Positions 45,262 to 51,492 of a DNA stretch of 64,000 nucleotides are shown piece after piece; positions within the stretch are counted from its first letter, which is position 1; each line of letters begins with the position of its first letter. Made by a program: the position numbers and the translations under genes. The notes under the pieces were generated by a model, which did no database searches, was not told the origin of the DNA, and worked only from the letters and a program-made list of their open reading frames with translations. The DNA comes from Yersinia vastinensis (GTDB taxonomy: Bacteria; Pseudomonadota; Gammaproteobacteria; Enterobacterales; Enterobacteriaceae): assembly GCF_902726565.1 (NCBI RefSeq), contig NZ_CACVAF010000009.1:62001-126000 (forward strand), written 5' to 3'.

Positions 45262-46581
45262 TCATGTGGCTTCAGTGGTATTAGCGATGTAATGTTGGAT
45301 TGTTGCCAGCAAATTCCCTGTCCCGCAGCATGTATCATTATATCCTTCAGTATGCCGGCGATTAATGACGCGGTCGTGGGGGCATCCACCGTGACAAATA
45401 GAAAACCACTGACAATGGTGCATTTTTATCGTCGCCTCTTTTTCCTCATTGATGGCTTGTTGATTATGGGATGAGTGAGCTAAAAGATCGGCTAAGTCAG
45501 TATGTAATAATGAACCATAAATACTGTCTTTATCACCGACATATTTATCACAGGGGGAGACATCTCCGTTGGGCTCCAAAGTAATTATCTCTTGTGAACA
45601 ATTCCCAGACCAATAACAAGCGGCAGTTTTTGTCGCCGGGTTTTTTAGCACTTTGATAAAATCGTCAAAAACAGCGATATGTATCTTATCTTGATAACCT
45701 TTAACCCAGAGCGTAAACAGTATGGAGAGAAAGTTAATAAACTCGGCATAACTGATGAAACTGTTGCCGATGTATTCACCTTTAACTAACCGATTGTCAG
45801 GCACTATATTGAGGAACTCAATACTGGTTAATTCAATTGAAATAAAGTAATCGAGCATTTCTTTCATATCCGTTTGGTACACATCTCGATCAACAACTAT
45901 GAGGGCACCATACAATATATTATGTTGCTGTAATTTTTTTATTCCTTTTGCAATACGATCGGAAGTTCCCCTTCCTCGATAGTCAATTCTTCTTTTATCA
46001 TTCACTGCTGGGACACCATCCAGACTTATTCCGACATTCATTCCAATACCTTGAATAAACTTTAGCCACTCATCTGAAATACTGACTAAGTTTGATTGCA
46101 TCGTATTCGTAATATATTGTCCCGGCCGTTTAAATTGTTGTTGCAACCAGATCAACTTTTTAAAAAAAGCAGGTTTGAGTAATGTTATTTCACCGCCATG
46201 CCATACAAACTCAAATCTATTTACATTAGGAATAGCCAGAATCTGGCGTACACTATGAACTAGTGTATGAAATGAAACCGTTTGGTTGGGGCCTTCGGCC
46301 CATGAATGGCAATAGGTACAGCGTAGATTACATAAACGTGTCGCCTTCAATACAATAACCAGTTTTTCTGCTTTGATTGCTTTTGCAGAGATATATTTCT
46401 TTATTTCTTGATTGTATATTTCCACCTCATCATTATCTAATATTTGATCGGCAGGGATTTTACCGATCAAATATGCGGATAATGATTTATATTCACAAGT
46501 TTCAAGTTTTTTTAAATGTTGAGTGTCTATATCATTAATTTTAATGCAATCAATGTTTTTGACTGGAATTCTATTTTCCAT
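45262..46581 (-). CDS. xyeB: Radical SAM/SPASM peptide maturase, XyeB-like
   Basis: 439 residues. The [4Fe-4S] radical SAM motif CNLRCTYC has Cys84, 88 and 91 (CxxxCxxC). A C-terminal SPASM region holds further cysteines at 322, 328, 344, 390, 396, 400, 418 and 419, enough for two auxiliary clusters. HGGE (128-131) lies in the usual SAM-binding region. Members of the XyeB family install three-residue cyclophanes on Trp or Phe of XyeA precursors in Xenorhabdus, Yersinia and Erwinia. It is last in the operon, 17 bases after the ATPase gene. A specific maturation role fits the precursor at 51093, but no assay is implied. Confidence 0.75.
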   Translation of the reverse strand: MENRIPVKNIDCIKINDIDTQHLKKLETCEYKSLSAYLIGKIPADQILDNDEVEIYNQEIKKYISAKAIKAEKLVIVLKATRLCNLRCTYCHSWAEGPNQTVSFHTLVHSVRQILAIPNVNRFEFVWHGGEITLLKPAFFKKLIWLQQQFKRPGQYITNTMQSNLVSISDEWLKFIQGIGMNVGISLDGVPAVNDKRRIDYRGRGTSDRIAKGIKKLQQHNILYGALIVVDRDVYQTDMKEMLDYFISIELTSIEFLNIVPDNRLVKGEYIGNSFISYAEFINFLSILFTLWVKGYQDKIHIAVFDDFIKVLKNPATKTAACYWSGNCSQEIITLEPNGDVSPCDKYVGDKDSIYGSLLHTDLADLLAHSSHNQQAINEEKEATIKMHHCQWFSICHGGCPHDRVINRRHTEGYNDTCCGTGNLLATIQHYIANTTEAT

Positions 46582-46598
46582 AAAATATTCCTATTTGG

Positions 46599-47258
46599 TC
46601 ATGTGAAATTACCATCTTTCATATTGATTACTCTATTTCCGTAAGTGGCTGCTTCAACTGAATGCGTCACCATAATAATAGTGGTGCCTTTTTTATTTAT
46701 ATATTTCAATTGCTGGAGTACAGCATGTGCATTTTTGCTATCTAAATTCCCAGTAGGTTCATCAGCCAAAAGCAATGTGGGTTTAGACACCATCGCCCGG
46801 GCGATAGCTACACGCTGCTGTTGACCGCCTGATAATTGCGCAGGCTTATGTTCTCTCCGGTTATCAATACCGAAGAGAGTTAAAATCTGATCGACTCTTT
46901 CAATCCGCTCTTTCTTGTTAATACCCCGATATTTAAGGGGTAATGCAATATTATCAAAAATGGATAGATGAGGTATAAGATTAAATGATTGAAAAATATA
47001 CCCTATCAGAGTTCTTCTCAGAATGATCTTTTGTGAATAACTTAAGTTAGTTATTTCCTCTCCCGCGAGAGTTAGTGAACCACTATCCAAATTATCAAAT
47101 AGACCAATGATATTGAGCAGTGTTGATTTTCCCGATCCCGATGGTCCCATAATTGAAACGAAATCGCCTTTTTCAACAGAAAAATTCAAATGATTAAGAA
47201 CCTTAGTCTTTATTGTTTTGGTTATGTAGCATTTTTCAGCATTTTGTATATTTAGCAT
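46599..47258 (-). CDS. MacB/LolD-type ABC exporter ATPase
   Basis: 219 residues. Walker A GPSGSGKST, signature LSGGQQQRVAIARAM and Walker B LLLADEPTGNLD are intact, and the latter is typical of LolD/MacB ATPases that pair with FtsX-like permeases. The ATG at 47258 follows the adaptor stop by one base; an earlier in-frame ATG would overlap that gene. Together with the adaptor and the permease it forms an export pump, probably for the modified peptide. Confidence 0.85.
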   Translation of the reverse strand: MLNIQNAEKCYITKTIKTKVLNHLNFSVEKGDFVSIMGPSGSGKSTLLNIIGLFDNLDSGSLTLAGEEITNLSYSQKIILRRTLIGYIFQSFNLIPHLSIFDNIALPLKYRGINKKERIERVDQILTLFGIDNRREHKPAQLSGGQQQRVAIARAMVSKPTLLLADEPTGNLDSKNAHAVLQQLKYINKKGTTIIMVTHSVEAATYGNRVINMKDGNFT

Positions 47259-47259
47259 T

Positions 47260-48522
47260 TTATTTAAACTCAATGATATCGTATTCATTATTATTGGTTT
47301 CAGGAGGCATGACAATATGTTGTCCAGCCGTCAGCCCTGCTGTGATCTCTGTTTTTATGGCACTTCTTCGTTTAATGCTTACTTTGGATTTAATGGCTGT
47401 ATCTTTTTCTGGTTGGTAAATATAGATAAAATAATCCCCATTTTTGCCAGAGACAATACTTTCTGTCGGAACTAGTAATACGTTATCATTTTCTTCCTGC
47501 AATATAATCTGTATTTCAATCGACTGTCCTCTCTTTAACGGAAAAATACTTTCTTGATACGGTACAAGTTTGGCTTTGAACTTACCATTTTCAACAATGG
47601 TTGATACCGACTCAATGAGGAGAGGGACATTCTGACCATTTATTTGTGAAACGATATGGCTCTGCGGTATGATTTTATCGAGATAATACTCACTGAAGTA
47701 AACATTAAAATAGTATGATTGTAAATTATCTATTATTGCGATTTTTTTACCGGGTTTTATCTGCTGACCTAACTCAATATCCAGAACAGATAATGTTCCA
47801 TCAATTGGTGCAGTTATTACTAGCTGATCCATACCATCTTCAATCATTCCCATCATTCTCTCTAGTAATGAAATAGAATTCTCTATCTCCTTAAATTGTG
47901 ATGGAAATGATTTTTTATTTTTATCATTATGTTCCCGCAATATGTCAACTTTTATCTGCCAGTTTCTTAGCATGCCAATTTGGTTTTCTAATTCAGATTT
48001 GGCAATCATTGATTTCCTATCTAGTACTTGATGTCTGTCTAATGCTTTAGAAATGACAGCTATTTGATACTCTGCGTCTTGCAAGTTTATTTTTGTGTCT
48101 CGATTATCTTGCTCAAGCTGCATTTTTATATTACGCAGGTTATTTATTTTTTCTGCAATATTCGCTATTCTAGATGTTGCTTCTAGCATAAAGTCATAGT
48201 TTGATAAATTGGCAATAACATCACCTTTAGCCACAGTATCAAAGGCCTGCTTTGTGATATCTATAACTTTCCCACCGCGTTCACTTGAGATAATTATGCT
48301 CTCCTTTGGTACTGTAATTGCCCGTGTAATGAGTAGATCTTGATACGACTCTGGCTTAATTTCATGAAAGATAACATCCTCTCGCGAAACTAGGAGTGCT
48401 CGCTGAATTGTTGATAAATAATATACAGAGTAAAGGCTGCCAATAAACAGCATTAGCACGAAAATAATAATTAATTTAGCGCTGTTATTTATATGTTTTT
48501 TTGGTTCTATTTTTATATCCAT
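47260..48522 (-). CDS. HlyD/MacA-type periplasmic adaptor subunit
   Basis: 420 residues. One N-terminal helix anchors it in the inner membrane (about 17-37, LIIIFVLMLFIGSLYSVYYL). A long coiled coil is expected from about 120 to 215 (SRIANIAEKINNL.., NKKSFPSQFKEI). Lipoyl-like halves flank it (AFDTVAKGDVIANL, LVITAPIDGTLSVLDIELGQ) and a beta domain follows. Such adaptors link the ATPase-permease pair to a TolC-type outer-membrane channel; no such channel is encoded here. Confidence 0.82.
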   Translation of the reverse strand: MDIKIEPKKHINNSAKLIIIFVLMLFIGSLYSVYYLSTIQRALLVSREDVIFHEIKPESYQDLLITRAITVPKESIIISSERGGKVIDITKQAFDTVAKGDVIANLSNYDFMLEATSRIANIAEKINNLRNIKMQLEQDNRDTKINLQDAEYQIAVISKALDRHQVLDRKSMIAKSELENQIGMLRNWQIKVDILREHNDKNKKSFPSQFKEIENSISLLERMMGMIEDGMDQLVITAPIDGTLSVLDIELGQQIKPGKKIAIIDNLQSYYFNVYFSEYYLDKIIPQSHIVSQINGQNVPLLIESVSTIVENGKFKAKLVPYQESIFPLKRGQSIEIQIILQEENDNVLLVPTESIVSGKNGDYFIYIYQPEKDTAIKSKVSIKRRSAIKTEITAGLTAGQHIVMPPETNNNEYDIIEFK

Positions 48523-48527
48523 GGGTA

Positions 48528-50915: not shown

Positions 50916-51033
50916 TTGTTTTAATGAAATTTAGTGATGTTATTTCTTTAAATTATTTATTTTAATTATCGTATCAACACTAAAATATATTATATTTCTA
51001 TTGCAATGCTGAAAATATACTGAGTAACAGTTA

Positions 51034-51064
51034 GGATTAAGATGTTAATGAAACACCTTAATCC
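51034..51064 (-). promoter_or_regulatory. Hairpin between the precursor gene and the export genes
   Basis: Perfect 8-base stem GGATTAAG / CTTAATCC with a 15-base loop, 30 bases after the precursor stop on the minus strand. No T-tract follows, so it is not a classic terminator. It could stabilise the precursor mRNA or attenuate the downstream genes. Confidence 0.35.
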
Positions 51065-51092
51065 AATATATTAAAAAATGTCATTGATTAAC

Positions 51093-51293
51093 TTATTGTT
51101 GAGTAAAGCTTTTTGACCAATTCCATGCGGTTATTTTGGTATTGGTTCCGTTGTTTTTTAAATTTTCTATTTCATGGTCATTTATAGAGAGCGAATTATT
51201 TTCAAATGATGCTTCTAATGACGCTAACTTGGTTCTCAACATCATTAAATTTGTCTTGTTTGTTTTTCCGTCAGTTTGGTGTGAAATATGCAT
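51093..51293 (-). CDS. xyeA: XyeA-like RiPP precursor peptide
   Basis: 66 residues when begun at the second ATG (51293), where GGAGA lies six bases upstream; the first ATG (51305) has only a distant AAGGA. The leader (about 1-50) is polar and helix-prone (LMMLRTKLASLEASFENNSL). The core end reads TAWNWSKSFTQQ (55-66), carrying Trp57, Trp59 and Phe63. Each aromatic starts an aromatic-X-X triad, the target pattern of three-residue cyclophane enzymes. It is the promoter-proximal gene of the minus-strand cluster ending in xyeB. Confidence 0.7.
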   Translation of the reverse strand: MHISHQTDGKTNKTNLMMLRTKLASLEASFENNSLSINDHEIENLKNNGTNTKITAWNWSKSFTQQ

Positions 51294-51492
51294 ATAATTC
51301 TCCATTTAAATAATATCCTTTAGATGTTACTGAAGCTTGGTAAGTGTTCAGCCATTTATTTGTAATTCTTTTTTTGGACTTTATCAATGTTTTTTATTTC
51401 TGATTGTCACATAGCCTCTAATTAATTTTATTGTTATTTAAATTATTTTTTAGAACTAAATGTAACGATGATGATGATAAGTTTTTTATCAA
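51294..51492. promoter_or_regulatory. Probable promoter region of the RiPP cluster
   Basis: About 200 AT-rich bases before xyeA. No regulator gene or confident operator was found. The frmA-fghA terminator lies at its far end. Confidence 0.4.

What the first reader, a model, noticed from the sequence alone, without database searches (positions are those of the whole stretch)
45262..51305. Complete XYE-type RiPP cluster with precursor, maturase and tripartite exporter
Seen: a short peptide gene, FtsX-like permease, HlyD-type adaptor, MacB-type ATPase and radical SAM/SPASM enzyme, all on the minus strand, with gaps of at most 17 bases from the permease gene onward, in an AT-rich block between core genes kgtP and fghA. 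Known: XyeB enzymes in Xenorhabdus, Yersinia and Erwinia form three-residue cyclophanes on XyeA peptides, and some products are antibacterial. Inferred: this locus makes and exports such a peptide. No protease or immunity gene is recognisable, so leader removal must be explained.
Basis: partly seen in the sequence, partly recalled or inferred. Interest (0 to 1): 0.8.

Follow-up and report, generated by a model that had tools for sequence, protein, structure and literature searches.

The report
Darobactin antibiotic cluster, not XYE

Summary
In detail: five minus-strand genes in an AT-rich block between a kgtP-like gene and fghA. The family is wrong. Curated models name all five as the darobactin cluster darABCDE, each above its cut-off; the maturase reaches only 80.8 of 450 bits on XyeB, and the peptide does not match XyeA. 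The peptide carries WNWSKSF, the published darobactin A core. A genuine XYE cluster lies elsewhere in this genome. Print answers the two missing parts: E. coli lysate trims modified DarA, and a plasmid with the dar exporter genes raises darobactin tolerance. Darobactin clusters in Yersinia are published, so this is a new member of a known kind. Seen here: DarE is above cut-off in 14 of 25 genus genomes; seven others are damaged, reduced or empty; one of these keeps only the exporter, behind the old darA promoter box; a covarying hairpin separates darA from darB. No product is shown from this strain, and five predicted producer strains, four of them Yersinia, gave none in a published screen.

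The parts
51093..51293 (-). darA, darobactin precursor, 66 aa; core WNWSKSF at residues 57-63 (bases 51105-51125), follower TQQ
   Evidence: NF038004 82.6 bits, cut-off 45; translation; core equals darobactin A in PMC8694152 Table 1
48528..50900 (-). darB, exporter permease, 790 aa
   Evidence: NF038008 1226.2 bits, cut-off 700
47260..48522 (-). darC, periplasmic adaptor, 420 aa
   Evidence: NF038010 714.8 bits, cut-off 450
46599..47258 (-). darD, exporter ATPase, 219 aa
   Evidence: NF038007 439.6 bits, cut-off 375
45262..46581 (-). darE, radical SAM/SPASM maturase, 439 aa; the C84-x3-C88-x2-C91 motif and the later cysteines (322, 328, 344, 390, 396, 400, 418, 419) are invariant in 12 aligned sequences (this one and 11 of the 13 other full-length DarE of the genus)
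   Evidence: NF038005 840.9 bits, cut-off 650; alignment A2
51356..51387 (-). conserved promoter-like box in front of darA (TTGATA at 51382-51387, 17-base spacer, TACAAA at 51359-51364)
   Evidence: aligns in 19 of 19 loci, exact to the pattern in 15 of them; the only exact match in the own genome; 0.02 expected in the window at up to 3 mismatches. The pattern was written after seeing the alignment; the generic promoter scan does not list the site
51034..51064 (-). conserved RNA stem-loop between darA and darB
   Evidence: z -5.29; 93.3% of cells paired, 7 of 11 pairs with two-sided changes, 0 of 500 shuffles reach the paired percentage or the covariation score; the stretches aligned were picked around each sequence's own predicted stem, which favours pairing
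45255..45270 (-). terminator-like hairpin at the end of darE
   Evidence: pattern scan
51499..51514 (-). terminator-like hairpin after fghA, between fghA and the dar promoter box
   Evidence: pattern scan; a similar GC-rich stem with T-run aligns in most relatives

Best explanation
This is a complete darobactin A gene cluster (darABCDE) of a Yersinia species. One promoter in front of darA probably drives the operon; a stem-loop after darA probably sets the peptide message apart from the downstream genes (both inferred). DarE joins W1 to W3 through an ether and W3 to K5 through a C-C bond in the core WNWSKSF. General cell proteases trim leader and follower, so no dedicated protease is needed. 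DarBCD exports the product and protects the producer. Released darobactin jams the lateral gate of BamA in Gram-negative competitors. Shown here: genes, family, core, conservation of promoter box and hairpin, single full-length BamA. From print on homologues: crosslinks, proteolysis, target, exporter-linked tolerance. Inferred: that this strain makes it.
For: All five proteins exceed curated darobactin cut-offs. Core identical to darobactin A; same precursor type in published Yersinia entries. Cysteines of DarE invariant in 12 aligned sequences. Intact ORFs with tight spacing. DarE over the cut-off in 14 of 25 genus genomes. DarE of Y. intermedia installs the bicycle on its own (Arg-core) DarA when co-expressed, and E. 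coli lysate releases mature product from modified P. khanii DarA (PMC9055067 passages). A plasmid with the dar genes, exporter included, raises the darobactin MIC of E. coli Nissle from 1.6 to >16 ug/ml, which its authors ascribe to the exporter genes (PMC11559228 passages). One full-length BamA, and no column that separates 14 dar+ from 5 species without a working cluster, so no target-based immunity is visible.
Against: No product is shown from this strain; five predicted producer strains, four of them Yersinia, gave no detectable compound in PMC8694152. The cluster is damaged, reduced, empty or absent in 10 of 25 genus genomes and unreadable in one, so it may be on its way out in the genus. 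No regulator gene is in the cluster. The generic promoter scan does not list the promoter box.
Confidence: 0.95

Rival explanations
1. XYE-type triceptide cluster: XyeB-like enzyme making three-residue cyclophanes.
For: DarE and XyeB are related radical SAM/SPASM enzymes (80.8 bits on TIGR04496); both systems use short precursors and exporters.
Against: Score far below the cut-off of 450; no XyeA match; no GG leader and no C39 peptidase transporter. A true XyeA/XyeB pair (97.4 and 742 bits) sits elsewhere in the genome.
Confidence: 0.01
2. Silent or decaying darobactin cluster: genes intact but no longer expressed or useful, a stage before the losses seen in relatives.
For: Seven of 25 genus genomes are damaged, reduced or empty at this locus; predicted Yersinia producers gave no product in one study.
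Against: All five ORFs, the promoter box and the hairpin are intact here, and DarE cysteines are invariant in the 12 sequences aligned.
Confidence: 0.2
3. The exporter's main selected role is protection against darobactin made by neighbours, with production secondary.
For: Exporter-only locus in G016, with the darA promoter box now in front of darB; published tolerance effect.
Against: Only one such genome of 25; in four others (G008, G011, G018, G002) exporter genes are broken or mostly gone too. Pairwise dN/dS of about 0.03-0.17 includes the time before the loss, and dS is mostly saturated, so it cannot date the constraint.
Confidence: 0.25

Closest known systems
Darobactin A cluster darABCDE (Photorhabdus khanii)
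   Same: Same five genes, darA followed by darBCDE, same WNWSKSF core, follower residues after the core.
   Different: Precursor is 66 aa with another leader and follower TQQ; sits near fghA in a Yersinia chromosome.
Published Yersinia darobactin clusters (PMC8694152 Table 1; PMC9055067 cluster III)
   Same: Same genus; precursors ending ITAWNWSKSFTQQ are listed for four Yersinia species. DarE is 75-88% identical to 12 genus relatives compared here.
   Different: This exact precursor sequence is not among those in Table 1.
Vibrio crassostreae plasmid dar cluster (NZ_AP025478.1)
   Same: darA, darB and darE annotated, with adaptor and ATPase genes in the darC and darD places; DarE 60.9% identical; a hairpin also follows darA.
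   Different: On a plasmid typed as conjugative; an extra ABC transporter ATP-binding protein gene follows darE.
XYE/xenorceptide triceptides
   Same: Radical SAM peptide maturase; a review says xenorceptides also hit BamA (PMC12971899 passages); the XyeA of this genome ends NWSRSF.
   Different: GG leader, C39 peptidase transporter and aspartyl protease-like protein; separate locus.

Membership tests
Darobactin cluster (darABCDE) | DarE maturase above curated cut-off | tested here: met
   840.9 bits vs 650
Darobactin cluster (darABCDE) | DarA precursor with W-x-W-x-K/R-x-F core | tested here: met
   82.6 bits vs 45; WNWSKSF
Darobactin cluster (darABCDE) | DarB, DarC, DarD exporter | tested here: met
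   1226.2/700, 714.8/450, 439.6/375 bits
Darobactin cluster (darABCDE) | Trp-Trp ether and Trp-Lys C-C crosslinks in the product | not testable with these tools
   Shown in print for homologues (PMC9055067)
Darobactin cluster (darABCDE) | BamA as target | not testable with these tools
   Literature only
XYE triceptide (XyeA/XyeB) | Maturase above TIGR04496 cut-off | tested here: not met
   80.8 bits vs 450
XYE triceptide (XyeA/XyeB) | Precursor matching TIGR04495 | tested here: not met
   Only NF038004 matched at E <= 0.01; the true XyeA at L060 scores 97.4
Dynobactin (DynA) | Maturase above NF041298 cut-off | tested here: not met
   187.9 bits vs 450
DarW exception family | Maturase above NF041300 cut-off | tested here: not met
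   505.5 bits vs 650

The most novel reading that the evidence does not exclude
In Yersinia the darobactin locus is an old chromosomal weapon being lost repeatedly, and in one species reduction stopped at a working immunity locus: the exporter alone, now right behind the old darA promoter. The genus also carries XYE peptides whose tails (NWSRSF here, NWTKSF in the exporter-only species, RWGKSF and others) resemble the darobactin tail NWS(K/R)SF, so two unrelated export systems may deliver two BamA blockers with a convergent C-terminus, and DarBCD might guard against both.
Probability: 0.25. Interest if true: 0.55.

Novelty: new member of a known kind. Interest (0 to 1): 0.3.

Why it matters
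The cluster itself adds one more predicted darobactin A producer to a published list. An exporter-only relative would be a natural reservoir of tolerance to an antibiotic class under development, worth knowing for surveillance.

Tried and rejected
XYE family: rejected on curated scores. Second BamA as immunity: rejected, one full-length copy over the cut-off in 25 of 25 genomes; the best second hits score about 77-89 bits (TamA-like is a recalled label), with weaker fragments below. BamA substitutions marking producers: no column of 803 (117 variable) separates 14 dar+ genomes from 5 without a working cluster (G002, G009, G015, G017, G022); the other six genomes were left out of that contrast. 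Mobile-element borders: no tRNA in 40000-56000; no long direct repeats bounding the block (direct repeats only, 44900-51800; inverted repeats not asked). Rfam: one match, below its gathering score, in 50500-52000, the only stretch searched. Shared regulon for the promoter box: the only exact hit in the genome is dar itself; one further hit at 3 mismatches, one in the reversed control. The generic promoter scan found no excess (25 against 30.2 in shuffles) and did not list this site, so the promoter claim rests on conservation. Viral contigs: none. Order-level survey: DarE at E <= 1e-60 in 3 of 394 genomes and DarB over its cut-off in 3 of 394, all in this genus; the 394 are a draw from a larger group, so absence elsewhere is not shown. 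By sequence DarB has no relative in the PDB at E <= 0.01, and DarE's best four are sulfatase-maturating and other radical SAM enzymes. No structure was predicted. Clustering of the label 'intact' on the species tree is no stronger than chance (104 of 500 shuffles as low). A paper search for XyeA/XyeB returned no relevant paper in the 15 listed of 34; one search did better. Own errors: the promoter pattern was first written one base short (repeated in 74); the hairpin was first counted two columns out of register, and the right register was read off its slid control and confirmed by counting columns. One search stopped on a file-name error, redone; one search stopped at kgtP (too few rows) after the dar and fghA trees.
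Full report
What is there. Five minus-strand genes fill 45262-51293, between a kgtP-like transporter gene (recalled name for the PRK10406 model) and fghA, with gaps of 5, 1 and 17 bases from darB onward and a GC of about 0.33-0.37 across most of the block against 0.41-0.52 outside. Every one passes a curated darobactin cut-off: DarA 82.6/45, DarB 1226.2/700, DarC 714.8/450, DarD 439.6/375, DarE 840.9/650 bits. The peptide reads ...ITA-WNWSKSF-TQQ. WNWSKSF is the darobactin A core as printed in PMC8694152 (section 5 with Table 1 read), where precursors of Y. 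enterocolitica, Y. frederiksenii, Y. rohdei and Y. bercovieri with this core and follower are listed; this exact 66-residue sequence is not among them.

The XYE reading fails. The maturase scores 80.8 bits on XyeB (cut-off 450) and the peptide matches only the darobactin model. A true XYE locus does exist in this genome, on another contig (G000:C2, read as L060): XyeA 97.4 bits, XyeB 742 bits, an HlyD-type adaptor, an ABC transporter with a C39 peptidase domain, and an aspartyl protease-like protein. So the genome has both systems, each with its own exporter.

How it probably works. PMC9055067 (passages; first part of section 8 read) reports that DarE makes the bicycle, net +12 Da, including on a Y. 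intermedia precursor with an Arg core, and that E. coli lysate releases darobactin from modified P. khanii DarA. PMC11559228 (passages) reports a darobactin MIC above 16 ug/ml for E. coli Nissle with the dar plasmid against 1.6 without, and ascribes it to the exporter genes; the plasmid also carries darA and darE. BamA is the published target (PMC8694152 section 10 read; PMC11531245 passages). In 25 of 25 genus genomes there is one full-length BamA, and no alignment column separates 14 dar+ species from 5 without a working cluster (six genomes were left out of the contrast), so immunity by altered target is not visible. Against production: PMC8694152 states that five predicted producer strains gave neither a congruent activity nor detectable compound. 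Its methods passage names four Yersinia strains and one Photorhabdus. Of these, Y. frederiksenii ATCC 33641 has a full-length DarE here, and Y. aldovae ATCC 35236 a broken darE frame in its draft assembly, which could be decay or sequencing error.

Regulatory anatomy. A box TTGATA-N11-AARAATTACAARTAA lies at 51356-51387, readable as a sigma-70-type promoter with a 17-base spacer (TTGATA...TACAAA). It aligns in 19 of 19 loci examined, the exporter-only locus included, and fits the pattern exactly in 15 of the 19, with changes in G008, G012, G018 and G023 (the pattern was written from the alignment). It has one exact match in the own genome. The generic promoter scan does not list it and finds no excess of promoters. 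A stem-loop at 51034-51064 begins 31 bases after the first base of the darA stop codon. Of 18 darA loci, 16 have an unbroken stem of 9 or more pairs there, G014 an interrupted one, and G023 none. On 17 rows (15 distinct) 93.3% of cells pair, 7 of 11 pairs change on both sides, and none of 500 shuffles reaches the observed paired percentage, number of two-sided cells or covariation score; the counts of pairs changed on both sides (245 of 500) and of pair types (499 of 500) are not above shuffles, the rows are related, and the stretches were picked around each predicted stem. Of two stretches of the Vibrio plasmid locus that I folded, the one just after darA has a strong hairpin (z -3.42, 1 of 200 shuffles as good) and the next has none (z 1.52). 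Its role, setting apart or stabilising the darA message, is inference. No T-run follows it in the window, so a classical terminator is unlikely.

Distribution and history. In the genus, DarE exceeds the cut-off in 14 of 25 genomes and DarB in 16 of 25. The 14 also show darA and open darB, darC and darD; in one, G004, the cluster is split over two contigs. Of the remaining 11: G001 has a broken darE with the other genes open; G008, G011 and G018 have broken or missing parts of several genes; G002 keeps only the start of darB beside a lipase-like gene; G016 keeps darB, darC and darD, but neither the DarE nor the DarA model finds a real match anywhere in it (best DarE-model hit is its XyeB at 75.9 bits; best DarA-model hit 15.4 bits with three stops); G015 is empty, with 184 bases between the kgtP and fghA stop codons; G009, G017 and G022 have neither dar nor this kgtP; G024 is cut by contig ends and cannot be judged. 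The G016 proteins still score 1170.5, 710.5 and 435.7 bits, and the darA box stands in front of darB there. On a four-gene tree, which I rooted on the three dar-free species (one group, support 100/100), the label intact needs 7 changes, 6 forced by well supported branches, counting the split from those three and the unknown G024. I read this as one old arrival and at least four to five separate losses; the tree alone cannot tell gain from loss. Gene trees are not fully vertical: holding G005, G014 and G016 together is rejected for darB (p 5.9e-6) and darC (p 0.0035); that trio was chosen after seeing the trees. DarA, DarB and DarC diverge faster (median identity to the window 65, 68, 70%) than DarD and DarE (84, 83%) and kgtP, fghA, adhC and BamA (95-99%) (8 to 12 relatives per gene).

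Placement. The distance from the fghA stop to darA is 0.26-0.46 kb in 17 of 18 loci and 1.84 kb in G007 (that gap was not examined). On the other side is kgtP or, in G005, G007, G019 and G021 and beside darE in G004, the DUF924 gene; the kgtP-fghA setting is thus common but not universal. A draw of 394 genomes of the order gave no DarE outside the genus at E <= 1e-60, though Photorhabdus and Vibrio clusters are published; a Vibrio crassostreae plasmid typed as conjugative carries annotated darA, darB and darE with adaptor and ATPase genes between.

Verdict. The exporter-only relative, the covarying darA-darB hairpin, and the pairing with an XYE peptide of similar tail are the parts that may repay work. 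XyeB exceeds its cut-off in 7 of 25 genus genomes, one with an internal stop; XyeA tails were read in 6 of the 7, not in G020. PMC12971899, a review (passages), says that xenorceptides also act on BamA; I did not see the primary paper. A search for darobactin with exporter terms (14 papers listed) and one with pseudogene, Yersinia and dar operon terms (10 listed of 1,087) listed no paper on exporter-only dar loci by title or abstract; the library lacks most subscription journals.

Noticed in passing
L060:4409-10190 (G000:C2, outside the window): Genuine XYE cluster in the same genome: XyeA (ends GGWVNAFLNWSRSF), XyeB, HlyD-type adaptor, C39-peptidase ABC transporter, aspartyl protease-like protein. 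XyeB exceeds the cut-off in 7 of 25 genus genomes, one with an internal stop.
   Followed up: partly
L060:4409-4579 compared with window 51093-51293: The XyeA of this genome ends NWSRSF, the same last six residues as darobactin D (WNWSRSF); other genus XyeA tails read are NWSRSF, NWTKSF, NWPKSF, RWGKSF and RWGRAF (6 of 7 XyeB genomes). Looks like convergence on one BamA-binding tail.
   Followed up: partly
L078:3515-7850 (G016): Exporter-only locus: darB, darC, darD open, darA and darE absent, the darA promoter box directly upstream of darB.
   Followed up: partly
L080:3880-4090 (G015): Empty site: 184 bases between the kgtP and fghA stop codons, while its sister species G014 has the whole cluster.
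   Followed up: yes
L079:4678-7917 (G002): darB start remnant beside a 698-aa protein with a class 3 lipase domain and a 268-aa protein without a Pfam match.
   Followed up: no
L104 (NZ_AP025478.1:25829-43040): Vibrio crassostreae plasmid typed as conjugative carries annotated darA, darB, darE with adaptor and ATPase genes between, plus an extra ABC transporter ATP-binding protein gene.
   Followed up: partly
window 43802-45220: kgtP-like ORF: its near relatives align mostly from about residue 26 onward, so the true start is probably later; no near relative is found in 8 of 25 genus genomes, some of them drafts.
   Followed up: no
   Followed up: partly
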